Part shown: piece by piece, positions 8,403 through 34,533 of the stretch
Position numbering within the stretch: position 1 is the stretch's first letter
Layout: every line of letters begins with the position of its first letter
NCBI GenBank assembly: GCA_947170225.1
Contig: CAMVSQ010000012.1
Coordinates: 1-34,533, forward strand
DNA from: an uncultured bacterium
GTDB lineage: Bacteria > Patescibacteriota > Gracilibacteria > Absconditabacterales > Absconditicoccaceae
Reading direction: 5' to 3'
DNA: 34,533 bases
Translations under genes and position numbers: made by a program
Notes under the pieces: generated by a model
The model's database searches: none
Told to the model about the DNA's origin: nothing
The model's input: only the letters and a program-made list of their open reading frames with translations

Positions 8403-10049
8403 ATGACTCCTGATTTTGATATAGCAAATATTCCACACAAACCTTGAGTTTATCAGTTCAAAGATAAAAAAGGTAATATTTTGTATATCTGAAAAGCTAA
8501 AAATCTGAAAAACAGAGTTTCTCAGTACTTTAACCCAAATTCTGTCTGGAAACAAGAAATGTTGAATTTGGCAGAAACTGTAGATTTTTTTCAAGTAAAA
8601 ACAGAATCAGAAGCTCTGTATTTAGAAGATAATTTGATAAAAAAATATCAGCCACCATTCAACAATATGCTGAAATGATCAAATAGTTATGCTTATATCA
8701 AAATCACAAACGATGATTTTCCACAGATAATCATCACCAGAAACAAAATCAAAGACGGATCAAAATACATCTGACCAAAACACAATACCAGAGAATTGAA
8801 AAACTTTTTGCAGTATTTGAGGTATATCCTCAAATGGAGATGATGCAAAAAAACTGAATTCAAAAAATGAAAAGTTTGTTCAGATTGTCATTTTGGTCTG
8901 TGTCAATGACGATGCTCCAAACAATATTTCCCAGATCGTGAACAAGCAAAAAAAGAGTACTCGGACATAATTTATCTAATCGAGCAATTTTTCAGATGAA
9001 ATACAAAACCAGTAGAGCAGGAAATAAAAAAGCAGATCCAATCTGCTATTCAAGAGCAACATTTTGAGCGAGCGGCCAAACTCAGAGATATTTATCTGCA
9101 GATAGAAAATTTAGTCGAAAAGCAGACAGTGGTAATGTCCAAAGATACGACTTGATATATATGTCAGATCAGAGAAATCTCAGGTTGGCTCGTTTACACT
9201 GTGCTAAATTTTTACGAATGAAAGTTGATTGATGTGATTGTCAACAAAAAAAATAAAGAAGATTTTGACGAAAATTCAGTACTATCAGCACTGGAATCTG
9301 AGCTCGGAAATTTAGAGAAAAAAGAAATTGATGGCTCAGTATTTTACCATACAAAAAAAATCAAACTAAATAAAACACAGACAAATGATATCAATACTTT
9401 GATAGATTGATTTTTTGATTCGTATGTTGTCTGAGAATCCTTTAGAGATGAAAATATGATCAACTGACTTCTTGCCACCCTACAACAAAAATACAATCTC
9501 AAAAACTTCCCATATCAAATTGAATGTGTCGATATTTCCCATTTATCTTGAGCATATACGAGTGGTTGACTTTCATGTTTTGTATGATGAATACCAAATT
9601 ACAAACTATACCGCAAATACAAAATCACATCAAAAATTGATGTGAAATCAGGAGATGATTATGCAGCATTGACTGAAGTTATTACCAGAAGATTTCAAGA
9701 TACACAAAATTATCCAGATTTATTTATTCTTGATGGATGAAAAGGACAGCTTGGAATTCTCAGAGATTTATTAAAACAAGAACGATTTCAAAAAGTTTAT
9801 TCCAAAGTAGATTTTGTATCGTTGGGAAAATGAATAGCAAGGCACACAGGAGGAAAGCTTAAATGAGAAAAAGAAAAAATATTCAAATTCGACGATTCTT
9901 TGGAAATCCAACAAATCGATTTAGACTATGATCAAGCTGACAAAATATTGGTAAAAATCCGTGATGAAGCACATAGATTTTGTAATGCATATAGAAAAGA
10001 GCAGATGGCTTGATGATTGAAGACTCAACTCAAAAATGCGAATAAATAA
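8403..10049 (+). CDS. uvrC: Excinuclease ABC subunit C (UvrC), lacking the C-terminal HhH domain
   Basis: A 548-residue nuclease of nucleotide excision repair; with UvrB it cuts on both sides of a lesion. Residues 10-90 are the GIY-YIG 3'-nicking domain (GVYQFKD ... ILYIGKAKNLKNRV). A cysteine cluster lies near 155-175 (CSDCHFGLCQGRC), as in UvrC proteins reported to carry an iron-sulfur cluster. A UvrB-binding UVR motif follows near 200-230 (EQHFERAAKLRDIY). The RNase H-like 5'-nicking domain shows DISHLSG and VGGIPNYKLYRKYKI. The protein ends about 20 residues after the family landmark RDEAHRF, where most UvrC proteins continue with a helix-hairpin-helix domain of roughly 60-80 residues. 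No remnant of that domain follows the TAA. The start is the ATG at 8403. Confidence 0.95.
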
Positions 10050-10147
10050 TAATTTTAATGTGTTTAATAAATATAACAATAAGTCAATATTTTTTATTAA
10101 AACTTATTAAAAACAATAGATTCTATTTCCAAATTTTCATCCATTTT

Positions 10148-10199
10148 TTGATAATTTTTTTTTTTTGAATATAATTAGATTAGCTAATAATTGTTAGCT
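10148..10199 (+). promoter_or_regulatory. Promoter and leader hairpin of the solenoid protein gene
   Basis: TTGATA (10148-10153), a 16-base spacer and TATAAT (10170-10175) make a near-consensus sigma-70 promoter. The predicted start falls at about 10182, at the base of a small hairpin AGCTAA/TTAGCT (10182-10199) 30 bases before the ATG. The AT-rich stretch 10050-10147 after uvrC shows nothing else I can support. Confidence 0.65.
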
Positions 10200-10228
10200 G
10201 ATAGCATTTACAATTTTTTAAATTAATT

Positions 10229-11827
10229 ATGTCAAAACGCGGAAAACATATATTGTGTTTTATGGCTTTGTGTACACGAGTAGTCATACTTTTTATGGAG
10301 GCTTTTTCTTTTTCAAAAAAGGAAAATGCTGAAACAACAGAAACAACAAGTATTTCAAACACACATGGTGCAGCAGATATTATACTGTCCTGAGAAAATA
10401 CATCATCTTGAAGTGAAACGACAACAAATATAATAAATTCTTCACCTATTTCAGCTAATTACGACAAAAATTTATCAACCCCAAGTCCCACAAACAAATC
10501 AAAACCAAACTCTACCAACAAAGTAGAGCCATCCATAGAATTAGAATCTGTAAATATGGAAAAAATATCGCTGGATACTTTGTCATCAAATATAGCAAAC
10601 AAAACTGAAACTTTGGAATTGCTATACAAAAAAACCAATGATGAAAAAGTTTTAAAAGTATTGATAGACAATTTATTACAAGATTATCAATTTGAAAAAG
10701 TTAGATGATATCTAGCAAATATTGATATTTTTTCTTCATCAGCTATAGACAAACAAAGCTATATTTATACATATATAAACACACTGTCCATCACCGATCC
10801 AAACAGTATGAATAATTTCATAAATTTCATTGAACAAATGAAATCAAAAAATTTGATATCATCAGATGAATACTTGTTTTACAAATGATTGCAAAAAGTT
10901 TGGGACAAAGATTATGATGTGGCCATAGAAACATTTAAACAAATAACTAGTCCAGCTTATTCATGATTTACAAAACAATTGGAATCTGCGGTCTCAAATT
11001 TCAAAAGCCAAAAATGAATGCCTAGTTATTACCAAGATGCTTTAGTTTCACTCACAGCTTTGAAAAATTGATATTTCTCCATTGCAAATAAATTAGCGGT
11101 TTATTCTATTTTAGAAGACAATGACTATATTTTACCATATCAAGTTTTGGCTTATTCAAATTTCTTGACCAAAAATTGGGACAAAGCAATTTCATATTTT
11201 TTCAATTTATCATCACTGGATATAGAAAACAAAAATAAATACGATTTCTATCTATGAATTTCCTACTATCGACAATGAGAATACGAAAAATCTTTGACTA
11301 CATTATACCAATTGGTAAATGATTCTACATACAAAACAGATGTTTACAGATACTTATTACTAGACTACGAACAGCTTGGACAGACCGAAAAAATGGTCCA
11401 AATTTGGCAAAAACTCTTGTGAGAATATAATTTATCACAGTCTGATTTCAAATATTTTTATGATGTAGTATTTTTCAAACCATTTTCCAAATGAGAAAAA
11501 AGCGTAGTTTATGAAAACTATAGACAAATATCCTACGATATGGTGACAATTTGTTATGATAAATTTGGCTACAAAAATGATACATGTATATATGGAGAAG
11601 TCGGATTTAGTATCTCAAATTGATTACGAAATTCTGTAGAAGAAAATCTACTCTATTTAGCCCAAAATTACCCACAAGCAAATATTTTCCAAGCACTGTG
11701 AGATTATTACAAAAATAATAACGAAAAAGACAAAGCTAAATCAAATTACATAAAAGCAATTTCTTTGAGTGAAGATTCTACACAAAAATCAAATATCCAA
11801 AATGTTTTGTTAAAATTGATGGATTAG
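10229..11827 (+). CDS. Secreted or anchored helical-repeat (TPR-like) protein
   Basis: A 532-residue protein. The N-terminus is basic (MSKRGK) and followed by a hydrophobic segment at about residues 8-28, a likely signal or anchor. Next come about 90 residues rich in Ser, Thr, Asn and Pro, a flexible linker. The rest is helical and carries repeated patterns of the sort found in TPR-like solenoids (KVWDKDYDVAIETFKQI, NFLTKNWDKAISYFFNL and RQGEYEKSLTTLYQL, spaced regularly). I infer a protein-binding scaffold outside the membrane; partners are unknown. Glycine is mostly TGA. It has its own strong promoter and leader hairpin. Its TAG stop overlaps by a few bases the end of the convergent frameshifted gene, so there is no room for a terminator. 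Confidence 0.75.
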
Positions 11828-13196
11828 TTTGATAAATTTGAAACTATTTTTTCACACAAATATTTTAATTTTTGTATATCAGATTCAGATATTTTTGCAA
11901 GTTTTTCATTTTCTCCAGATTGCAAAGTATTCATATATTTATCAAAATTTCAATCATCTCTAGCATACAAAGCAATCAATTCACACACATCTTCGGTAGA
12001 TTTTTTTTCAGCATTATCATATTTTTCACTAGTAGACACAGAAAAAAAGCTGTTTGCCATAATTTTTGTTTAATTCTTTCACATAATCAACCAGTGTTTC
12101 GCTTCATTCTACTTTATCTTGGATCACTGCATGAGAAATTTCGTGTAGTAATATTTGAGGAATTTCAGCCTTATTTTTTGTTCAGACAATAATTTTGTTT
12201 CCTTTATCTGCTCAGTACAGATGTCATTCGCTATTTGAATTATCAGTTTCAATCTTAATTTCTGGATGATTTTTTTCCAAATATTTTACCATAGATTTTC
12301 ATTTATCTGAAAGCTCTACAAATTCAGAAACTCTATCAGACTTTTACATCCTTTTTCCCTTCAGGTCACTTATCTCCAGACTTTTTTTCTTCTTTTTTCT
12401 CCGATTTTTCTCATTTATCTTCTTTTTTTTCAGACTTAGTTTCTGTTGGTTTATCAGATTTTTTCAATGATTCCAATAATTTTTTCATATCATCATTTCA
12501 TTTTTTTAGTTCAGCATTTTCTTTTGATAATTTTTCGTTGCTAGCCAAAACATTTTTCAATTGATCCGTCAATTCTCATAATTTAGTAGTCAAACTATCC
12601 ACTTTTCATTTCAAATCTGCAACTTCTTTTGTTCAAGCAGCGGCGGTCGTCACAGCGGCAGCGGTAGCAACTTTTCATGTATCTTTTTTTCCAGAGTCTA
12701 CATTTACCCATTCTCATTTCTTTTTTCCAAATTGTAGTCTAGAAAACCGATTTTTGTCTTTTTTGATTACATCAGCAGTTTTCAATTTATCATAGGAAAA
12801 ATCCGAAATAGGTTTTTTGGAAAAAACTCTACCAAATGTAGATCTCCAAGCATTAGTCACGCTATTTTTTACAGTATTTCGGCTGTTTACCACTCCATTT
12901 ACAGCGGGAGTAATTATAGATCTTATTCATCATTCCACAGCAGTTCATGTAGCGATTACAGGACTCAAAATCACATTTCAAATTTTGTGATACCATTTTC
13001 ATTTTGTCCAAGAATCTACAAAAACATTTTTTATATCGTGTGCTGTATTTTTTGCCACATCCAAAATGTCTTTTGGTAGTGCTACAGCAGTGTCAATTAT
13101 ATCAGTAGCAGTGTTTAGAGCAGTACCAGCTACTCTAGGAGCTATCATAGCTGTATTTCCCAATCTATTTCAAAAATTTTTAGCTTTTTCTCACAT
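11824..13196 (-). pseudogene. HExxH (metallopeptidase-like) protein with two frameshifts
   Basis: Three frames join into one protein of about 455 residues. Frame 1 (13196-12333, 287 codons) has an amphipathic Ala/Gly-rich N-terminus (PRVAGTALNTATDI and similar), a TTAAA-type Ala/Thr stretch, a coiled coil near 195-245 and a Lys/Glu-rich linker, then stops at TAG. One extra base at about 12341 moves to frame 2, which holds LLHEISHAVIQ, an HExxH zinc motif with following helix. An extra base in a seven-base homopolymer (12042-12048) moves to frame 3, which holds STEDVCELIALYARDD, a plausible third-ligand helix, and runs to TAA at 11824. Both lesions are +1. They may be true decay, an assembly error in homopolymers, or recoding. 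The start ATG at 13196 is preceded by a good divergent promoter. Confidence 0.65.
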
Positions 13197-13230
13197 TTGG
13201 AAAAATAAACCAAATAAAATTTTATACTCT

Positions 13231-13258
13231 ATTATATATATTTTTTTCAATTTGTCAA
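13231..13258 (-). promoter_or_regulatory. Consensus sigma-70 promoter (leftward) for the HExxH gene
   Basis: On the minus strand TTGACA (13258-13253), a 16-base spacer and TATAAT (13236-13231), both hexamers perfect. The start site should lie near 13224, 28 bases before the ATG. It mirrors the rightward promoter at 13287-13315. Confidence 0.8.
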
Positions 13259-13286
13259 ATAAAAATAGACTTTTTAGGGTGAAATT

Positions 13287-13315
13287 TTGACAAATAAAAA
13301 AATTTGTAGTATAAT
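13287..13315 (+). promoter_or_regulatory. Consensus sigma-70 promoter (rightward) for the coiled-coil operon
   Basis: TTGACA (13287-13292), exactly 17 bases, TATAAT (13310-13315): a perfect match to the bacterial housekeeping consensus. The start site should lie near 13322, 28 bases before the ATG at 13350. The -35 boxes of the two promoters are 28 bases apart and form part of an inverted TTTGTCAAA/TTTGACAAA pair. One regulator could control both. Confidence 0.85.
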
Positions 13316-13349
13316 AATGTATAGGATTTTATATATTAAACCAAAAAAA

Positions 13350-14195
13350 ATGGTAAATACCATCAATAACTCCACAAATAGTGAGATTGATTCACTAAAA
13401 AAACATCGAGAATCTCTATCCCAATGAGCATTACAACAAGAAATGGGAATCTATTATGCCAAATGAGATTTTGAAAAATGAGATGCTTTGAGGCAATTTA
13501 TACAAGAAAAAAACAATCCTTCGGCAGTAGAACAAAAAAGCAAAGTTTTTGAGGAAAAATATCAAAAAATGCAGGATGAAATAGATGAAATTAGAAAAAA
13601 ATATGAACAGGAGAGAAAAAATATTTCAAAATGAACCAAAAATTTTATAGAAAATCAAAAGGAGGAAGAAAGAGCCGTAAACGAAAAAATGAGACAATTT
13701 TTTTCTCAAGATATGCAAAATTTTGTTTCAAGTACAAATGAAGATATAAATGAACTAAAACAGAGCAAAGATAGCCAAATTGACGACTTAAAAGCTCAAC
13801 TTTCGTGAATCGTCACCAAATGACCAAAACTTTGAGAATATCTTTCATTAAAAAGGAGGAGATTGGTCTCAATAAATGATAAAATTGAAAATTTAAAAAC
13901 TGGAGAAGACAAAGAAAATTATCCAAAAAATGTTTTAATTTATTTGATGGCATTGACAAACCGTTCTTTGTTTTGAGCTAGACAATGGGCAAACAGGCAA
14001 GGGATCAAATTGACATGGAGACGAAAGTCTGAAGACATAAAAAAACATTTAGAGACGATTGAAGATAAATTGAGGGTGACAGACAAAGATTCTCTATGGA
14101 CAAAATGACTCAAAACTCAATTACAACAGCACCTTTTGGATGCTAAACAGGCCTATGTAGAAAAACAAAGACAAAGTGTAGGTTTGACAGCATAA
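13350..14195 (+). CDS. Coiled-coil protein of unknown function
   Basis: A 281-residue, highly charged soluble protein with no signal peptide. Residues 60-165 are predicted long helix (EEKYQKMQDEIDEIRKKYEQ and onward), rich in Lys, Glu and Gln. A second helical section covers about 185-275 and contains a short hydrophobic stretch (NVLIYLMALTNRSLFGARQW) that is not long enough to be a sure membrane helix. No known domain was recognised. It is the first gene after the perfect promoter at 13287-13315. The next two genes follow after 28 and 23 bases, so all three are likely cotranscribed, ending at the terminator 17222-17257. Confidence 0.8.
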
Positions 14196-14223
14196 AAAAT
14201 TTTTACCAATTAAATCAAAAAAA

Positions 14224-14529
14224 ATGATAAAAACATTAAACGAGGCAAAAGAATATATGTTTGACAGAATCCAAAAAATATCTGGAGAGCCCGTAGATGA
14301 AACTGAAAAAGCAATAGTCTCTACTTTACTAGAAGAAAATTTTTATGAAAAAATCTGATCAGTAATTAGTGAAGAAGAAATAGCACAAATGCAAGCTCAA
14401 GATGACAACGATTTGGAATGAAAACTTTTTTATAAAATACCAAATTATGTATCCATATTAGAAGAAACTACAGCTGAAGTTTTAGCCGATTATTTAAGTC
14501 CAGATATTACAGAAAATACTGATGAATAG
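14224..14529 (+). CDS. Small acidic protein
   Basis: A 101-residue protein, strongly acidic toward the C-terminus (ISEEEIAQMQAQDDNDLEG, then LSPDITENTDE). It is all helical by eye and has no membrane segment. It resembles in size, charge and layout the 107-residue protein at 20326-20649, which likewise sits beside a very large gene of the same block. The pair may be paralogous chaperone-like or partner proteins of the large products, but that is inference from size, acidity and position only. Only two TGA codons need reassignment. Confidence 0.75.
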
Positions 14530-14552
14530 TTTATTTTTTTTAATTTATAGAC

Positions 14553-17210
14553 ATGGCAGACAATAGTAGAGCAAAGTCACATTTGGATCAAGTGGAAACC
14601 AAATTAAATCGTATAGATGATATAGATAGTATAAATGCAGTAGTCGCAGCAAGATCTTTGGATCTGTTTAGAAATTTGACATCCAAAAATCTTTTTGTAG
14701 ATGAAGATGTAAAATCGTCTTTGGCTACTATCAAAAATCAATTGGATACACAATTAGTCTCAGATGCAAATAGTAGGATTTGATATTTGACTACAGAATT
14801 GGCATGATTACCTGCCAATCCATGAAATGCTACCAGAAGAGCAGCGATAGCTAGAGAAATTTCCAATCTCCATAGGATAGTAGATACTACATGAAATAGG
14901 ATGCCATGAATAACAAATAGATATGATGAATATTCTAGATTACTTACATTTGCAAATTATTTCAATCTTTCTTGAAATCTTACAGATCTAAATATCAATA
15001 CATCTACTACTCCAGTTTCATGAACTACAGTTGTAAATTTATCTAATTTTGTAAATACTTGAGCACCTACTCCAAATTACGAACTTTGTGATGAACAATG
15101 AAATAAACTGCCACAAACATGATGAAATTACAAAATCAATATATGATGACAAGAGTATACATTATGATGAATTCCACCTTTATGATGAAATTTGGATTGT
15201 AGTGCTATGACTATAAGTCCAGCCCTTTTGAATTCTCCACTGGAAGTTGCACTTTCTATCAATGCAGTGTACAAAGATACACCAACAGGTACAAATGTCC
15301 AATGAGTAAATGTCGTCTGCAACAAAAAATTTAAACTAAAATTAAACGATGGAAATATCCCATTGAACGACATCGCCCGTGGTGTACAATTTGATAATTA
15401 CAACAACACACTGCCTGTATGACACAAAATATGAGATACAGTAGAGACAAATTTTGCTACAAATAGGTACAAAATTGAAAGAAAAGTATTGGAAAAAATT
15501 TTGAAAAAAAATGGATGAACAAAATTTGATACATTAAATCCAAAGCAAAAAGAGGATTTTTATCAAAGGATCAGAAATCAAGTTTTGTGATGATGAGTGC
15601 CATATTTTGACAATATCTACAATGTGGAAAATATAAATATCCCAGCTGATAGATATGAAGCATACAAAAACCGATTTATAGCAGACTGAAAAGATCGAAA
15701 CAAATGAGATAATATCAAAAAAAATGCAAATTATATCGCTTTAATCCACAATACTGTGACAGACAAAATTGATGATTTCTTTTGATCTAAACTTGAAAAT
15801 TTTATGTGAAAATTACCAGAAGAAACCCGCCTAAAATCAGAATTGACAAGATTTTTGGACGAAATAGAAAAAAACAAATTAGACGATGATCTCAATACTC
15901 GTGTAAATACAGATGTTTCAAGGAAAAATCACAAAATGGACAAATGACCACGGTCCTTGCTACACAATAGAGATACAAATTATATGAGATTTTTTTCAAA
16001 CTCTTCAACAAGTGTTAGATGACAAAAAGTAGATATAAAAACAAATACAGACCCAAATTCTATCGACAATCTAGAGCCAGTGAAATACGATATGGATGTA
16101 AATATTACCTGAAAAAATAATATTTCAGTAGAAATTAAAATCGAATGAACAAACGAAGTTATAAAACATAAATCTGGTGAACCATCAGCTTTGATCCGCA
16201 AAATTATGAGAGATCAGAGAATTAAATATTGAAAAGCTAGGGCTCATATTGGATTTAATGTTTACAAAGCTATGGTCCAAATGGCAAAAGAAAAAGATAT
16301 TAGCCTACAATACCGTGATAATGCAAATCATACCAGATTTATTGATATTGAAAATGGAAATATAGTAGTTAGACAGATTGACAATCTGACAACATTATCC
16401 AGAGAAGATTCAAAAATAATTTTTGATCAAGAAAAATTTTTGAATTCAAATGAATTTGACAAAGTTAATCATAATTGAGCTCTCAGGCAATGATTGGACA
16501 AAATTTGAATTCATTTCAATCTAGCAATGAATCAACTACACAAACAGTATCGCAAATGAGTAGAAAAGAGATTTGGTTCTCTTATTTCATCAAAAAGTAG
16601 GATGACTTTGCCGACATCATTTTGGCTTTCTCCAGTCAAAAAAATATTAAATTTAGGAGATATTTCCAAATTTGATTTCAATACTACGGTTCAATCTGGA
16701 TGAAAAAATATAAACATAGATTTCAAAAAAAATAAATTTACCATCAATATGGAATGATTAAAAAAACCGCTTTCATCCAGAGATTTGTGAAAAATATTAA
16801 ATCATAGACAAAAAAGGATGAGAGTATTTGATGGTATGGAGAGAGATATCGTTGAATGAATCTATTCTGCTTTAATTTCCAAACTCAGAGAAAATTCAAA
16901 GATAAATCGTACAGATTTTTGAGTAAAAGATGATATTACTGGAAATATGTATGTTTTGGATCAAGATGGAGAATTTGGCATGATTACCAGAGAAGATTTA
17001 AAATCAATAAGTAATCCAATCAGATGAGTTAGCTGGAAAAATTTTGGATCCTTGAGCCAATTAAAATTATCATGAGTGACTGTCAGAAAATTGGAAGAAA
17101 AACAAGTAAAAGAATTGATGAAAAACCCATTCCTCATGCAAAGACTTGTAAAAGCCATGAATCAGAGAATGTGATTTGGAGAAAGTATAAAAGCAATGTT
17201 TCGTAAATAA
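14553..17210 (+). CDS. Large protein of unknown function (885 residues)
   Basis: One open frame under code 25 of 885 residues. The ATG at 14553 follows the small acidic gene by 23 bases. Residues 1-130 are helical. Residues about 140-280 are beta-rich and contain paired strand segments and several Cys (YELCDEQGNKL, LDCSAMTISP, VVCNKKFKLKL), reminiscent of Ig-like modules. Residues 290-450 are helical and basic. The C-terminal half mixes helix with short beta patches (INIDFKKNKFTINMEGL) and ends with a basic tail. I see no signal peptide and no clear membrane helix, and no enzyme motif. Glycines are overwhelmingly TGA, including runs of two and three. It is the last gene of its unit. Function unknown; an assembled or injected structure is possible but unsupported. 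Confidence 0.8.
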
Positions 17211-17221
17211 ATAAAATATAG

Positions 17222-17257
17222 AAAATCTAGATATCATTTGTGTGTCTAGATTTTTTT
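17222..17257 (+). terminator. Rho-independent terminator after the 885-residue gene
   Basis: AAATCTAGA/TCTAGATTT with a 13-base loop followed by T7, 12 bases after the stop codon. Confidence 0.85.
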
Positions 17258-17287
17258 ATAAAAACAAAAAAAGTCAAGATATGTATG

Positions 17288-17335
17288 GCAAAAATTCGTT
17301 AGATTTTTGCATTTTTTAGTTTTTTTGGATAAAAT
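17288..17335 (+). promoter_or_regulatory. Hairpin and promoter before the 967-residue gene
   Basis: A second hairpin GCAAAAAT/ATTTTTGC (17288-17310) runs into a T-rich stretch. It overlaps a possible promoter, TTGCAT (17307-17312), 17 bases, TAAAAT (17330-17335), with a start about 30 bases before the ATG. The two readings are not exclusive. This fills the 160-base gap between the large genes. Confidence 0.45.
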
Positions 17336-17371
17336 TGTATATGGAAAAATTTTAATTATTATTCGGGTAAA

Positions 17372-20275
17372 ATGGACAATAAAAAAACTTACGAATCAAT
17401 TGGAAATCATTTAGAAGATAGGCTCAAAAAGGACACAAGAGTAGTAGAATGAATCAAATGACAACTTTTTGATGTACTTACACTTTGAGATGATGAAAGC
17501 AGTCGTAAAGAAATTTGTGAAAATATAGAAAAAGAATTAGATGAAAGGATAACAAGATTACAAACCAAAAAAAATCAATCTTGAATGGATAAAAAACAAA
17601 TAGAAAACTTAAAAAGACTAAAAAATGATGTTCAAAAAAGAAAAAATGAAAACAGAAAAACAGAACCAGATCCATCATATTATATCAATTTAGATAGAAA
17701 ACAAGACAATTTTGACGCAAAAGTGATAGAAAATGTATGAAATAGTGTTATTTTACGAACAAAAACACACAATAACTTTCCAAATGAAGCACTGGTAAAT
17801 AGAATATCCAAAAATAATGAATATAACAAACAACTGGTGGATCATCTGGAATCTGAAATATGAAAAATAAGTGACACAATACACAAAACTAATTTGCAAA
17901 AAATCATTGACGAGCTAAAAAATATGCATACAACTCCTGTATCAGCTCCGACCACTTCAACCACATCTGTATCAACATCTACTGAAGATGTAGTAATAAA
18001 TGCAACAATTTCGGATATGTGAGCGGATGTGCTAAAAGAAAAAGTAGCACACAATGTAGAAGAAGAATTGAGAAAAGAATACAAAGAAATTGCAAAATGA
18101 AATGTATTCAAAAGAGCATATTTTTTCCTAGCAAGATGACAAATGAGAAATAAGAGAATCAAAGATGAAATGAAAAAAATATCTGGAAAAGCATTTACTG
18201 GGGATACTACAATTGATACTCATACACAAAATGCTACAGATCGCCATGAACTAGAAAAAGCAACTTCATTGGACGATAAAATAAAAAATATTGATGAATC
18301 TTCCAATATTATCTACCAAAATTCACAAATCGATGATCTATGCAAAAGATATATCCAATCTTATTGAGTCACCCCAATGAGTGATGCTCAATTTCAGACA
18401 GAATTCAACAATATTTTACAAAGTGATACAGCATTGAAAGCAGAATTAGACAAAGCAAAAGTTACTCATATGGGTACAAATATCCTTTTGAAAATGAAAC
18501 AAAAATGTGAACGAAAAGATCTGGTTTCTCAAGTTTCAAATAACTTGGAAAATTACGACAGGACAAAAGCCAATAGCTATATAGATAATATAAATATTGC
18601 TATACAAAATTATATAAAAAACTACCAAGATAATTCAAAAGAATTATTAAATGTATACAATGATTATCTTTCAGACAAAACTGACACTACCAAATTAGAC
18701 GCTCTCAAAAATTACCTAAATCACCAAAAATCAGTCATGGCACTGACCACAAATAATATAAAAATAAAATTAGATATAGTAAAATGATGAAAATCTGCAT
18801 ACCAGATCGACAACAAAGACCGTGAAAAATGATGGAAATACAGACTTGGACATTGGATGGACAGACATCCAGTTTGGACTACAGTTGGTACAGTATGAGC
18901 AAGTATTGGATTGTGAGCTCTTACATGATGACTTTGAACTGTGGCTTCTGCTATAGTTTCTACAGCATGATTTGCAGGTATAGTATGAACTACAAATGCA
19001 GTCAAAAAATGGACTCACCATACCAAAGAGCAAAATACACACGAAAAAGATTTGGTCACAGATCATGCAAACGAAATGAGAAAAGTGCAAGAGCGGATTG
19101 ATACGATGAATAATTGAAGATGATGGAAAAAATACAAAGCAAAAAGACAGCTGAAATTATACCATGAAACAACCCAAAGCAAAATCGCGATTACAAATAT
19201 CCTTTCTGATGATATAATAAATATTTCATCCAAAATTTGAGTTTTGTCTCCAGATGATGAAAATAGATTGAAATATAGTTTGATGGAGTGACGAGCAAGA
19301 CTAAAATATTATAGAGAAGTTTGACACAATTTCCTTGCTTCAAACGATAGATCCAAAACAGAAGAAGATTTCAACAAATTAGAAAAATCCATATTTTTGT
19401 GAGTCGATAAATTATGAGCGGCAGGCCTATCGGATATTGAATCTTATTCCGCACAAAATAATTTATCTAGGACTGTATCATTCAATGATATATATAATGA
19501 AATAAAAGATGATTTTGTCAAAACAGACAAGACATTTAGAGACAGAAGGAGAAATTTATCCATTAAATACTGAGTTTGCACAGCATGACTTTCCGCATTA
19601 ACGGCACTTGGTATGCAATATATCACTCATTCGTGAGTCTTTGCATGAAAATGAACTGAAGCGGTCGCATGATATAATTCAACTAATTCTATGTCAGATA
19701 ATTTTGAATTATGAAAGCATGAATTATTGGATACCTGAACCAGAAATGAAATATACAATGGTACAAAAAATGCACTTTCTGGAGCTCCAGACGGTTCAAC
19801 ATTAAATATTCACTATTGAGCAGGAACAGATGCTACAGGATTTATAAATACTCCGCCTTCCTCAACAGATTTAGCTACAAAAATCCAAACAGTATCCGAT
19901 AATATCAATTGAATGTCTGGTTTGACAGCATGAGACAAAGCTACATTCGTCAAAGAAGTGGCAAATCTATCATGAGGTCAATGAACAAACGGAGTACTAC
20001 AAAATATGAGACATGCAGAATTCCTTGAACAGGCGGCACAAGCTCTTTCAGATTCATGACAATCTGGTAAAATGGCGGTTTCTCTGATTCATGACTCATG
20101 ATTAGATGTGGTTTGAACTACTGTCCATAGTGCACCAGATAGAGTAGTAAACGGAATGATTGAAATTACAAAAGCTGAAATTCCATGAAAAACACCAAAA
20201 ACTTGGTGAAAACGATTGATGGGTATGCCAACATTTTTCAATACATTCAAAGATAGAGAAAAACCAGTTGCATAA
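17372..20275 (+). CDS. Large protein of unknown function (967 residues) with internal glycine-rich hydrophobic segments
   Basis: A 967-residue protein open only under code 25. Residues 1-190 are charged helix/coiled coil. A Thr/Ser/Pro/Val linker lies near 190-210. More helix follows to about 500. A Gly/Ala-rich hydrophobic segment lies at about 505-545 (VGASIGLGALTGGLGTVASA), most of whose glycines are TGA. A second helical region contains another hydrophobic stretch near 735-755 (CTAGLSALTALGMQYI). A Ser/Gly-rich region of low charge precedes the basic C-terminus. Long coiled coils around glycine-rich hydrophobic hairpins recall tape-measure, colicin and pore-forming proteins, but no family motif is present, so this is analogy only. 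There is no N-terminal signal. It is followed by the 107-residue acidic gene after 50 bases and then a terminator. Confidence 0.8.
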
Positions 20276-20325
20276 CACATCAAAAATATTACAAACAAAT
20301 AAATTTACATATAAAAAATACACAA

Positions 20326-20649
20326 ATGGAAAATAAAATATCAAAAACATTTCAAGAACAATTTTTGGATGAACTAATCCAAAAGGCTTGATTCGACTCT
20401 GAAAATGCTGATCTTCTCAAAGAAGATTTGAGACCAATTTTGAAAGAAAGAATCATGTTATACATCTACAAAGAAATACAAAATAATCAAAACGATGTAG
20501 ATATGGTCACTCGCTTGCTAAATGAAGAAAAATACGAAGAATTGACGGCTCGTCTACAGTTGATTATCCCAGATTTTGATGATTTTATATACGAAATTTA
20601 TGCCCAATTTGAAGATGAATATCTAGAAAACTTTGCAAACAAACAGTAA
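20326..20649 (+). CDS. Small acidic protein, possible partner of the large protein
   Basis: A 107-residue soluble protein, acidic and helical, ending in a segment rich in Asp, Glu, Tyr and Phe (IIPDFDDFIYEIYAQFEDEY). Only one TGA codon. It resembles the 101-residue protein at 14224 in size, charge and in pairing with a huge neighbour. It starts 50 bases after the 967-residue gene, and the unit closes with a strong terminator. No family recognised. Confidence 0.8.
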
Positions 20650-20666
20650 AAAACATGATAATATAA

Positions 20667-20703
20667 AAGATCCTGCTTTCAAAATTTTTGCAGGATTTTT
20701 TTT
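20667..20703 (+). terminator. Rho-independent terminator of the accessory block
   Basis: ATCCTGC/GCAGGAT stem with a 13-base loop followed by T8, 20-50 bases after the stop of the 107-residue gene. Confidence 0.88.
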
Positions 20704-20749
20704 AATCTTTACTTTACTTTCCAAAAAATTATTATAAACCTATTCTGCT

Positions 20750-20798
20750 GGCTACTGACTGACAGCTAGCGACTGAAAATTTTATTTTATAAAATTTT
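20750..20798. repeat. CTAGCGACTG-type repeat and adjoining palindrome
   Basis: The gap before rlmE holds GCTGGCTACTGACTGACAGC followed by TAGCGACTG. This is a simple imperfect reiteration resembling the palindrome at 25612-25687 and the CGCTAGTTGCTAG end of rlmE. Next comes a perfect 11-base hairpin GAAAATTTTAT/ATAAAATTTTC (20774-20798) ending five bases before the rlmE start. As RNA the hairpin would sit over the ribosome-binding region. Confidence 0.5.
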
Positions 20799-20802
20799 CT
20801 CA

Positions 20803-21447
20803 ATGCACTGAATTTACAACCCATATGATTTCTATTTCAACAAAGCAAAACAGGAGTGATACAAAGCTCGTAGTGTTTTTAAGCTGGAAGAAATTCAAGA
20901 AAAATTCAAAATAATAGATAAAAACACACACAAAGTACTCGATATTGGTTGTGCACCTGGAAGTTGGATGCAATACACTCATTCATTACTCCAAAAAATG
21001 AATGTAAAAGATTTTTCAATTATTTGATTTGATATTAAGGAAAGTACTGTAAATTTGCCGAATGTACATCCTTATGTCCAAGATGTTACAGTGATAGAAA
21101 AAGTAGATGATATATTAGAAAAAGAATGAATTATTCCTTATGATCCAGAAGTAAAAAATTCATGAGTAGATTTTATACAGTCAGATATGGCTCCAAATAC
21201 TGTAGGACACAAATCAGTGGATGCACTTCGTTCTGTTTGATTACTTGAAGAAACCTTGCGAATTTACAAAAAATATTTAAAACCAAATTGAAGGTTTGCT
21301 ATCAAAATTTTTATGTGACCATGATTTGATGAATTTGTAGCAGACCTAAAACAGCATTTTGGATGAAAAAATATAAAAGTCTTTAAACCAAAAGCTTGCC
21401 GTGCTATATCAAAAGAGACATACATAGTCAAAATCGCTAGTTGCTAG
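20803..21447 (+). CDS. rlmE: 23S rRNA 2'-O-methyltransferase, RlmE/FtsJ family
   Basis: A 214-residue Rossmann methyltransferase that puts a 2'-O-methyl on the 23S rRNA A-loop uridine (U2552 in E. coli). The SAM-binding loop is [11 protein letters not shown] near residues 48-58. The K-D-K-E catalytic tetrad is visible: Lys27 in ARSVFK, Asp128 in QSDMAP, Lys168 in FAIKIF, Glu205 in SKETYIV. Length matches the family. The ATG at 20803 gives the usual short N-terminus before the YKARS segment. The last codons (CGCTAGTTGCTAG) overlap the start of a repeat-like sequence, so the C-terminal end of the protein may have been rewritten by a repeat insertion. Confidence 0.93.
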
Positions 21448-21455
21448 ATATCGAT

Positions 21456-21480
21456 GTCATTCTGAACGAAGTGAAGAATA
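21456..21480 (+). repeat. Left end of the GIY-YIG element (copy E)
   Basis: GTCATTCTGAACGAAGTGAA followed by GAATA, matching the left arm of the 4895 palindrome except in the central few bases. Confidence 0.85.
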
Positions 21481-21505
21481 TAAATTTATATAAAAAATTG
21501 TTCAT

Positions 21506-32825: not shown

Positions 32826-34533
32826 TTACATATTTTCAAAAGCCTTGTCCAAATCTGCTTCCAATTTGGTCTCAGCATGACTTCTGTCTTTTTCGTCTTG
32901 TCGTTCTTTGGCAATTTTACTGAAATTTCATCCATTACCATCCAAATCCCTATATAAATCATCAAAATTTATCATTTTCAATTTTCAGTCATTTAGTTGA
33001 TCAATTTTTGTATACTTTTCAAATAAATCAAAAAGAGTTTCATCATCAGAGGGATATCAGTTTATTATCTGTCTAGAGTTGTATATATTGTCTTTGTCTG
33101 TGATGTAATTTTTTATAATTTCAGGGTAATTATCTCACACATCTTTGTCACTTTTTCCATATTCAGCAACCAAACTATCTATCTTTTGCATACAATTATA
33201 AATCTTGTTTTTTTCTGCAGTGGTAGAATTTTTTATATTAAAATTTATCAAATCCACAAATTCAAATAATCTACCATTATTTTGGTCTATAGCGGATCAA
33301 ATATTTCATCATTTGATAGATTCTATGAGTCAAATGGTTTTATCACATATTTTTTCTCATTTTATCTTGTCTGTCACAAAATGGTCAGTAAATTTTGTAT
33401 CACTGTACAAAAGATCCATCTTGTCAGATATATTATCTTGCAAAAATTTTGTGTATTCGGTGGGTGTGCTAGATTGTTCAAGTACAGATTTATCTACACA
33501 AGATAGTGCAATTTGAAAAACTTCTCACTGAGTGGGCAATTTAAACGGAGAATCTTCAAAATTTTCTCAAATCAAAAATTTATTTTCGTGATTTTTTACA
33601 ATCTGTGATGATGTCTGTAGACGAGCATTTGCATCATTTGTATCATGACGAAAAGAAAATCTGAGTCAACTTACATTTCATTTTATAGTCAATACTCCAT
33701 TTTCATTTTTGATTTCATTTGCCTTGTTAAATTGAAAATTATCTCAAAAATTTTTTCCTATACACATGGTCATTCATTTTACTTGAGAAAGTATGCACAT
33801 TTCTTCTATCAAATTTTTACTATTTTCATCCATATTTTGCTTTATGTCTTTTGTACTTCAGAGCAATTGCTTGTATTCGTCATCTGAAAGACTACCTTTG
33901 TCTCTACTATATCTATCAAAAATATTTTTCAAATTATCATCTATTATAAATTTTCCATAATTTTTTATTATTTCTGTATCGTCCATATTTTCAAAAAGTT
34001 TTTCATAAATTTCGGCATGAGATTCTTTGTTTTTTCATCTTTGCATAATCAAATTTTTGTTTCAGATATTATCATTAAACAGTTCTTTCCTTGTTTGTTC
34101 AATATTATTTTTGGAAAAATTATTTAGTTTTGTATCTGGTATATTACAACTATTGTTCAAATTTTTTATTATTCTTTCATATCGCGAAATTTCATCTTCT
34201 TTGTAAATTGGATTGTTTTTTACCTCCTTCAATGTAGCTTGTACCAGTATGAATTTACTGATAAAGTTTTCATCATGATTACTATTTTTCAGTTGCTGGA
34301 TTACTCAATTTTGTTCAAGTTCATATTTGGTGTTTTTAAACAATTCAGATTCTTGGTTCGTTTTTCCTTCCAGTTCTGGATGTTGTTGGATCAACGCTTG
34401 ACGAGCTTGTAAAGCATCATTTAGTTCTTTTATTCATGTCATAGCTTCAATAGCTTGTTGGTTTTTTTCAATACTTCCTTGTTTATCATCATCAATTTGT
34501 TGTTTATCATCATCAATTTGTTGTTTATCATCA
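32826..34533 (-). CDS. Large protein of unknown function, C-terminal part
   Basis: The frame is open from the window edge to TAA at 32828-32826, 568 codons; the start lies outside. The visible N-terminal end begins with exact DDDKQQI repeats. A Gln/Glu-rich coiled coil follows, then a long helical region with charged residues, a central section with some beta pattern (NGVLTIKGNVSGLRFSFRH), and a Lys/Glu-rich C-terminus (ERQDEKDRSHAETKLEAD). There is no membrane segment in the visible part. In composition and TGA use it resembles the 885- and 967-residue proteins at 14553 and 17372, but I could not find a shared motif. Function unknown. Confidence 0.78.
34480..34533 (-). repeat. 21-base tandem repeat encoding DDDKQQI
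   Basis: Two complete identical 21-base units (34480-34500, 34501-34521) and a partial third run to the window edge. The period is a multiple of three, so copy number can change without breaking the frame. More units probably lie beyond the edge. Confidence 0.9.

What the first reader, a model, noticed from the sequence alone, without database searches (positions are those of the whole stretch)
11824..20649. Accessory block of large unknown proteins with divergent consensus promoters and small acidic partners
Six genes in a row (an HExxH protein, coiled-coil protein, 101-, 885-, 967- and 107-residue proteins) match nothing I recognise. Each giant gene neighbours a small acidic protein. The two best promoters in the window drive the block. 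Another large protein of similar make-up lies at 32826-34533, and a secreted solenoid protein borders the block. In this lineage, known relatives live as predatory or parasitic epibionts. A dedicated attachment, effector or assembly system is therefore a fair hypothesis, but no motif proves it.
Basis: inference. Interest (0 to 1): 0.75.

Follow-up and report, generated by a model that had tools for sequence, protein, structure and literature searches.

The report
Giant envelope protein with small partner
This stretch of a parasite-like ultrasmall bacterium's genome holds an undescribed gene set, a giant probable membrane protein always accompanied by a tiny acidic partner, and the same pair recurs across the whole candidate phyla radiation, often fused or linked to enzymes that act on proteins, sugars or cell wall.

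Summary
The block is real and is more than a local oddity. The small acidic proteins (14224-14529 and 20326-20649) are homologous to each other and belong to the DUF5663 superfamily, which has no known function and is otherwise found across Patescibacteria. The 967-aa protein (17372-20275) founds an undescribed family: about 757 conserved residues, a Gly-rich hydrophobic hairpin, an exchangeable outer domain and a conserved NTF motif. Relatives occur in 25 of 49 genomes of its taxonomic family and, by profile, in 18 of 287 phylum-wide genomes. In 14 newly fetched loci found without using DUF5663, 12 still have the small gene beside or within two genes of the giant. The giant's C-terminus, or the next gene, carries swappable enzymes: a new HExxH/NExxT metallopeptidase-like domain, a GT2 glycosyltransferase-like domain, L,D-transpeptidase, VanY. 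The same HExxH and GT2 domains are fused in some genomes and separate genes in others. The window's copy carries no enzyme. The 885-aa protein co-occurs with it. Two perfect divergent promoters are confirmed. The large protein at 32826-34533 is unrelated. Best reading: a surface or envelope enzyme platform with a dedicated small chaperone, plausibly serving host interaction. The module is well supported; the mechanism is inferred.

The parts
13231..13258 (-). perfect sigma-70-type promoter (12/12) reading into P1
13287..13315 (+). perfect sigma-70-type promoter (12/12) reading into P2-S3-P4-P5-S6
   Evidence: same-strand genes follow with gaps of 23-161 nt
12333..13196 (-). P1, basic coiled-coil protein; likely start ATG 13196, inside the 305-codon ORF
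   Evidence: homologues in 4 other P5 loci
13350..14195 (+). P2, basic coiled-coil protein; likely start ATG 13350; directly upstream of S3
   Evidence: direct homologues L024, L030, L032
14224..14529 (+). S3, 101-aa acidic helical protein, DUF5663 superfamily by transitive homology
14553..17210 (+). P4, 885-aa protein of new family, no signal or TM, net +28
   Evidence: 19 of 49 family genomes, co-occurs with P5 (p=0.003)
17372..20275 (+). P5, 967-aa giant, founder of the new family; core at residues 205-962
18878..19006 (+). P5 residues 503-545: Gly-rich hydrophobic hairpin followed by conserved KK..HHTKEQNTHEK
19685..20206 (+). P5 residues 772-945: exchangeable alpha/beta outer domain (type A), invariant TD..N..L...R..R
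   Evidence: pLDDT 73, pTM 0.76
20240..20248 (+). P5 residues 957-959: NTF motif kept across outer-domain types
   Evidence: 25 of 29
20326..20649 (+). S6, 107-aa acidic partner of P5, DUF5663 superfamily by transitive homology
   Evidence: S gene downstream of 23 of 29 P5 genes, counting L032
10229..11827 (+). TPR solenoid protein with N-terminal hydrophobic segment; syntenic in 3 other P5 loci, not in most
12029..12292 (-). 87-aa HExxH ORF of doubtful status, overlaps the ORF at 11824-12060; not shown to belong

Best explanation
P5 is probably a giant, inner-membrane-anchored platform whose C-terminal part faces the cell envelope or the outside, and the adjacent DUF5663-type acidic protein is probably its dedicated chaperone or adaptor. 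It would bind the large protein (perhaps its hydrophobic hairpin) in the cytosol and hand it to the membrane or an exporter. The platform positions exchangeable enzymes, either fused at its C-terminus or encoded by the next gene: a metallopeptidase-like domain, a GT2-like glycosyltransferase, L,D-transpeptidase, D,D-carboxypeptidase. Their targets would be the envelope of the cell itself or, in these episymbionts, of the host cell. In the window's organism the platform is enzyme-free and is expressed from a strong divergent promoter together with a second basic-protein and acidic-partner set (P2-S3) and P4. SHOWN: homology, gene pairing, domain swapping, fusion versus separate gene, co-occurrence, promoters. 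INFERRED: topology, chaperone role, envelope or host target.
For: Pairing in both directions. The S gene lies downstream on the same strand of 23 of 29 P5 genes: 16 within 70 bp, 6 with an enzyme or other gene between, 1 detected by the Pfam model. In 20 phylum-wide loci chosen by DUF5663, 16 adjoin an uncharacterised protein of 379-1779 aa. In 14 newly fetched loci chosen by a P5-like profile without using DUF5663, 12 have the S gene adjacent or within two genes. The phylum-wide giants join P5 by iterated profiles (L160 E=1e-37). Swappable enzymes: the HExxH + NExxT domain is fused in L025-L028 and in L160, a genome of the phylum outside the window's class, and separate in L036; the GT2-like domain is fused in L155, L157, L198, L199 and separate in L035, L094, L099, L105; YkuD genes sit beside P5 in six loci; VanY in L094. 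Enzyme genes share an N-terminal domain (hold-out E from 5e-8 to 1.5e-4 for 6 of 8). S is kept whichever enzyme is present, or none, which points to binding the P5 core and not to immunity. Charge: all 35 S net negative; P2, P4, P5 net positive.
Against: No signal peptide seen; hydrophobic segments are modest (KD 1.5-1.6; the second segment is below threshold in the window copy). The full-length P5 model is poor, and the outer-domain model matches no solved or viral fold at E<=0.001. A GT2 enzyme normally needs cytosolic sugar nucleotides, which is awkward if the C-terminus is outside. Genomic context apart from the small gene is very mixed. No complex prediction or experiment supports S-P5 binding. 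The A11 seeds L155, L157, L160 and L105 themselves lie near S genes, though the 14 loci counted are others.
Confidence: 0.45

Rival explanations
1. The pair is a scaffold for the bacterium's own division or wall assembly: P5 is a membrane scaffold that places peptidoglycan enzymes, and the small protein is a structural subunit. Host interaction is not involved.
For: In L159 and L160 the giant plus DUF5663 lies directly next to ftsZ, and in L160 ftsA lies upstream. YkuD and VanY act on peptidoglycan, and L105's enzyme has peptidoglycan-binding domains.
Against: Patchy: 25 of 49 genomes of the family and 18 of 287 phylum-wide by the A11 profile, which does not suit a core division part. Strong divergence and domain swapping. 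ftsA or ftsZ neighbours were noticed in 2 of 34 phylum-wide loci.
Confidence: 0.27
2. P5-like giants are substrates or auxiliary parts of the Patescibacterial type IV secretion system, with DUF5663 as the secretion chaperone.
For: In L204 the DUF5663-giant pair lies between a VirB4 homologue (P-loop_TraG 6e-28) and a VirB2-like pilin (TrbC 3e-7), with a PrgI-type gene upstream; in L163 it lies beside a TrwB/VirD4-type coupling protein. The window's genome has a VirB4-type ATPase on another contig. This T4SS is essential for epibiotic growth in Southlakia (PMC10633639).
Against: Only 2 of 34 phylum-wide loci show it. VirB4 is near universal in the family (45 of 49) while P5 is in about half. 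The five family T4SS loci examined hold no P5 or S gene.
Confidence: 0.15
3. The giant is a remnant of a phage tail or contractile-injection module: a tape-measure-like protein with small tail chaperones.
For: Large helical protein with a hydrophobic hairpin beside a small acidic protein, as in tape measure and tail chaperone pairs (recalled resemblance only; gene layout).
Against: No significant PHROGs match, no relative in viral contigs, no sheath, tube or baseplate genes noticed in any locus, chromosomal synteny with uvrC and other housekeeping genes.
Confidence: 0.03

Closest known systems
DUF5663 (Pfam PF18908)
   Same: S3/S6 relatives match it (9 of 24 members, best 1.2e-7; two relatives above the curated cut-off), with similar length and an IPxYxxxLxEI..EF..EYL-like C-terminal half
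   Different: the window's own two proteins do not reach the Pfam model; the family has no known function, and I found no paper naming it or its giant partner
Polymorphic toxin or effector systems (PMC3482391 as overview)
   Same: conserved carrier, exchangeable C-terminal enzymes, fused or stand-alone cassettes
   Different: the small gene is constant whatever the enzyme, so it is not a cognate immunity gene; the window copy has no enzyme; no known trafficking domain
Secretion chaperone with large hydrophobic effector (T3SS or T6SS EagR type; from memory)
   Same: small acidic helical partner encoded beside a large protein with a hydrophobic hairpin
   Different: no sequence match to known chaperones, no such secretion system in the loci
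Patescibacterial T4SS of MPF-FATA type (PMC12102498)
   Same: two related loci lie with VirB4/pilin or VirD4 genes
   Different: not linked in the window or in the five T4SS loci of its family that were checked
Giant surface proteins of Vampirococcus lugosii (PMC8080830)
   Same: large membrane proteins in an Absconditabacteria predator
   Different: no homology tested to this family; those are reported to carry interaction domains, none was found in P5
OmpA-like peptidoglycan-binding domain
   Same: P5 outer domain keeps TD, N-x2-L-x3-R and a late R in OmpA-like order
   Different: about 50-residue insert; neither Pfam, HHalign nor Foldseek confirms it

Membership tests
DUF5663 (PF18908) | match to the Pfam profile by the window's own S3 and S6 | tested here: not met
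   no DUF5663 hit up to E=1 for P0003 or P0006; none in the own genome
DUF5663 (PF18908) | match by orthologues in the same gene position | tested here: met
   9 of 24 S proteins match, best 1.2e-7; all five genome hits in relatives lie beside P5
Patescibacterial T4SS | location in a VirB4-containing operon in the window's lineage | tested here: not met
   own VirB4-type gene on contig C6, no P5 or S gene near it
Patescibacterial T4SS | location in a T4SS operon in some relative | tested here: met
   L204 and L163; 2 of 34 phylum-wide loci
Polymorphic toxin system | exchangeable C-terminal enzyme on a conserved carrier | tested here: met
   HExxH and GT2-like fusions in relatives; absent in the window copy
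Polymorphic toxin system | cognate immunity gene that changes with the toxin | tested here: not met
   the same S family is kept with every enzyme type and with none
Phage tail or tape measure module | homology to phage protein families or presence in viral contigs | tested here: not met
OmpA-like peptidoglycan-binding domain | OmpA fold by profile or structure comparison | tested here: inconclusive
   motif order matches, but Pfam none, HHalign probability 3.4%, no OmpA fold in the 50 best Foldseek matches
Zinc metallopeptidase, gluzincin type (relatives only) | invariant HExxH plus downstream NExxT | tested here: met
   six sequences from two lineages; no Pfam or PDB match; activity not testable here

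The most novel reading that the evidence does not exclude
A Patescibacteria-wide host-interaction system of a new kind: a DUF5663 chaperone paired with a giant membrane protein that carries or recruits interchangeable enzymes (new metallopeptidase, glycosyltransferase, cell-wall transpeptidase) and presents or injects them at the contact site with the host cell.
Probability: 0.3. Interest if true: 0.9.

Novelty: new variant of a known kind. Interest (0 to 1): 0.7.

Why it matters
Patescibacteria are a very large group of mostly uncultured bacteria, and how they grip and exploit host cells is still largely open. A phylum-wide gene pair with swappable enzymes, which I could not find described in the papers searched, gives a concrete, testable candidate. 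It also gives DUF5663 a constant partner and therefore a first functional hypothesis.

Tried and rejected
OmpA-like reading of the outer domain: attractive motif order, not confirmed by profile or fold search. AlphaFold of whole P5: pLDDT 53, unusable for fold search. Foldseek of the outer domain: only a three-helix sub-part resembles protein A modules, E above 1. Common N-terminal domain of P5 and the enzyme genes: not supported, although enzyme genes share one among themselves; L036 and L093 failed the hold-out test. Viral origin: no hit. P0007 as a member: rejected. T4SS presence as predictor of P5: no power, since VirB4 is near universal. First genome-contig scan with P5 alone: nothing. 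P4 has no relatives in a 192-genome phylum sample.

Full report
1. The observation. The window is a whole contig (G000:C12) of a 952,577-base genome, 94% complete. The many in-frame TGA codons read as glycine (45 in each giant), as expected of the Gracilibacteria/Absconditabacteria group. Named relatives of the 967-aa protein are Candidatus Gracilibacteria and Candidatus Absconditabacteria records. The genes described are present. S3, P4, P5 and S6 have no significant match in Pfam, NCBIfam or PHROGs; the coiled-coil genes P1 and P2 match only generic coiled-coil models. Two perfect 12/12 divergent promoters at 13258-13231 and 13287-13315 are the best of 70 sites in 10000-21500; the number of sites overall is no more than chance, but no other site reaches 12/12. 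They move the likely starts of P1 and P2 to ATG 13196 and ATG 13350. The 'HExxH protein' is an 87-aa ORF without a family match. The large protein at 32826-34533 has weak similarity in only one other of 59 relatives and none to the block.

2. The block in relatives. P5 has relatives in 25 of 49 genomes of its family and in a few other families of the class. P4 has relatives in 19 of 49; the two co-occur (15 both, 4 P4 only, 10 P5 only, 20 neither; Fisher p=0.003; genomes of one family are not independent, so the p-value is optimistic), and P4 usually lies just upstream of P5 on the same strand. The two small acidic proteins are homologous: 24 of them form one cluster, later 35, all net negative. 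The typical order is P2 - S - P4 - P5 - (enzyme gene) - S. P2-S also occurs without P4 (L024, L030). An S gene follows P5 in 23 of 29 cases, 16 of them within 70 bp.

3. What the small proteins are. Nine of 24 match Pfam DUF5663, best E 1.2e-7, and in genomes of the relatives all five DUF5663 hits lie beside P5. The window's own two copies are too divergent to hit the model. DUF5663 occurs in 26 of 145 sampled genomes of the phylum. In 20 such loci, 16 adjoin an uncharacterised protein of 379-1779 aa (two of the 16 are cut by contig ends); the four without one (L151, L153, L154, L156) lie between infB and fmt/def.

4. The giant family is phylum-wide. Iterated profiles join P5 to L160 (E=1e-37), and through it to L155, L157, L104 and L105; a second seed joins L165, L168, L161, L162 and L166. 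A four-row profile of the wide family (A11) found relatives in 18 of 287 genomes. In 14 loci fetched from that search, 12 have an S gene next to or within two genes of the giant; the exceptions are L201 and a contig edge (L205). Because DUF5663 played no part in choosing these 14, this is a fair independent test; with a handful of S genes in a genome of roughly 900 genes, chance adjacency would be of the order of 1% per locus (my estimate).

5. Anatomy of P5. A variable N-terminal extension, a core of about 757 residues, a Gly-rich hydrophobic hairpin at residues 503-545 followed by a conserved KK..HHTKEQNTHEK stretch, a second weak hydrophobic segment near residues 730-750, an outer domain of at least two unrelated types, and a terminal NTF motif kept in 25 of 29 whatever the outer domain. 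The type A outer domain is modelled at pLDDT 73 and pTM 0.76 but has no significant fold match. Its invariant residues TD..N..L...R..R follow the order of OmpA-like peptidoglycan-binding domains, but no profile or fold comparison confirms this, so it stays a lead.

6. Swappable enzymes. A domain of about 400 residues with invariant HExxH and NExxT, and no Pfam or PDB relative, is fused to P5 in L025-L028 and L160 and is a separate gene beside P5 in L036. A GT2-like domain is fused in L155, L157, L198 and L199 and separate in L035, L094, L099 and L105. YkuD genes sit beside P5 in L032, L034, L092, L093, L094 and L097, and VanY in L094. The same two domains appearing fused in some genomes and separate in others is strong evidence of a functional link. 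Enzyme genes of different kinds share an N-terminal domain in hold-out tests (6 of 8 pass). The S partner is present whatever the enzyme and also where there is none, as in the window, so it is more likely a chaperone or adaptor of the giant than an immunity protein (inference).

7. Context. L159 and L160 lie next to ftsZ, L160 also downstream of ftsA; L204 lies inside a T4SS operon with PrgI, VirB4 and a VirB2-like pilin, and L163 beside a coupling protein. The window's genome has a VirB4-type gene elsewhere, without P5 or S genes near it. Host use, own-envelope use and T4SS use therefore remain open; patchiness and domain swapping lean towards interaction with other cells. The T4SS is essential for epibiotic growth in a cultivated Saccharibacterium (PMC10633639) and is widespread in the phylum (PMC12102498). 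A related predator, Vampirococcus, has many giant membrane proteins (PMC8080830). I found no paper naming DUF5663 or describing this pair in the searches made.

8. Verdict. A real, conserved module that I could not find described; mechanism inferred. P5, P4 and the HExxH domain are families without a match in the libraries searched. I file it as a new variant of the carrier-with-swappable-enzyme kind, since that is what it works like, while membership in polymorphic toxin systems and in the T4SS is not established.

Noticed in passing
L204:1686-11057: T4SS operon of another Patescibacteria family with PrgI fused to a long tail, VirB4, DUF5663, P5-like giant and VirB2-like pilin in a row.
   Followed up: partly
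L025:11587-12807, L160:13716-14891 and relatives: Undescribed metallopeptidase-like domain with a TRGQKI..DYGKEYP linker, HExxH and NExxT, found in two distant Patescibacteria lineages.
   Followed up: partly
L159:7730-11568, L160:6641-16253: Giant plus DUF5663 lies directly next to ftsZ; in L160 ftsA lies upstream.
   Followed up: partly
window:4076-4885: Gene with N-terminal hydrophobic segment and VanY-like features; it clusters with the enzyme genes of P5 loci, probably through the VanY domain.
   Followed up: no
window:6174-8094: Two adjacent paralogous proteins with N-terminal zinc-ribbon-like CPFC...CRYCGEF motifs.
   Followed up: no
window:32826-34533: Large protein running off the contig end, weakly similar only to one 722-aa frame in G221; lineage-restricted.
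   Followed up: partly
L106, L107, L108: A second P4 group lies away from P5 in three genomes of one genus, beside a conserved 543-aa gene.
   Followed up: no
L151, L153, L154, L156: DUF5663 without a giant neighbour, between infB and fmt/def, so the small protein may also act alone.
   Followed up: no
L034:11862-14945, L098:3966-4988: Enzyme gene with a methyltransferase-like stretch (FADTMGKNVVHLDRD), in L034 fused to YkuD.
   Followed up: no
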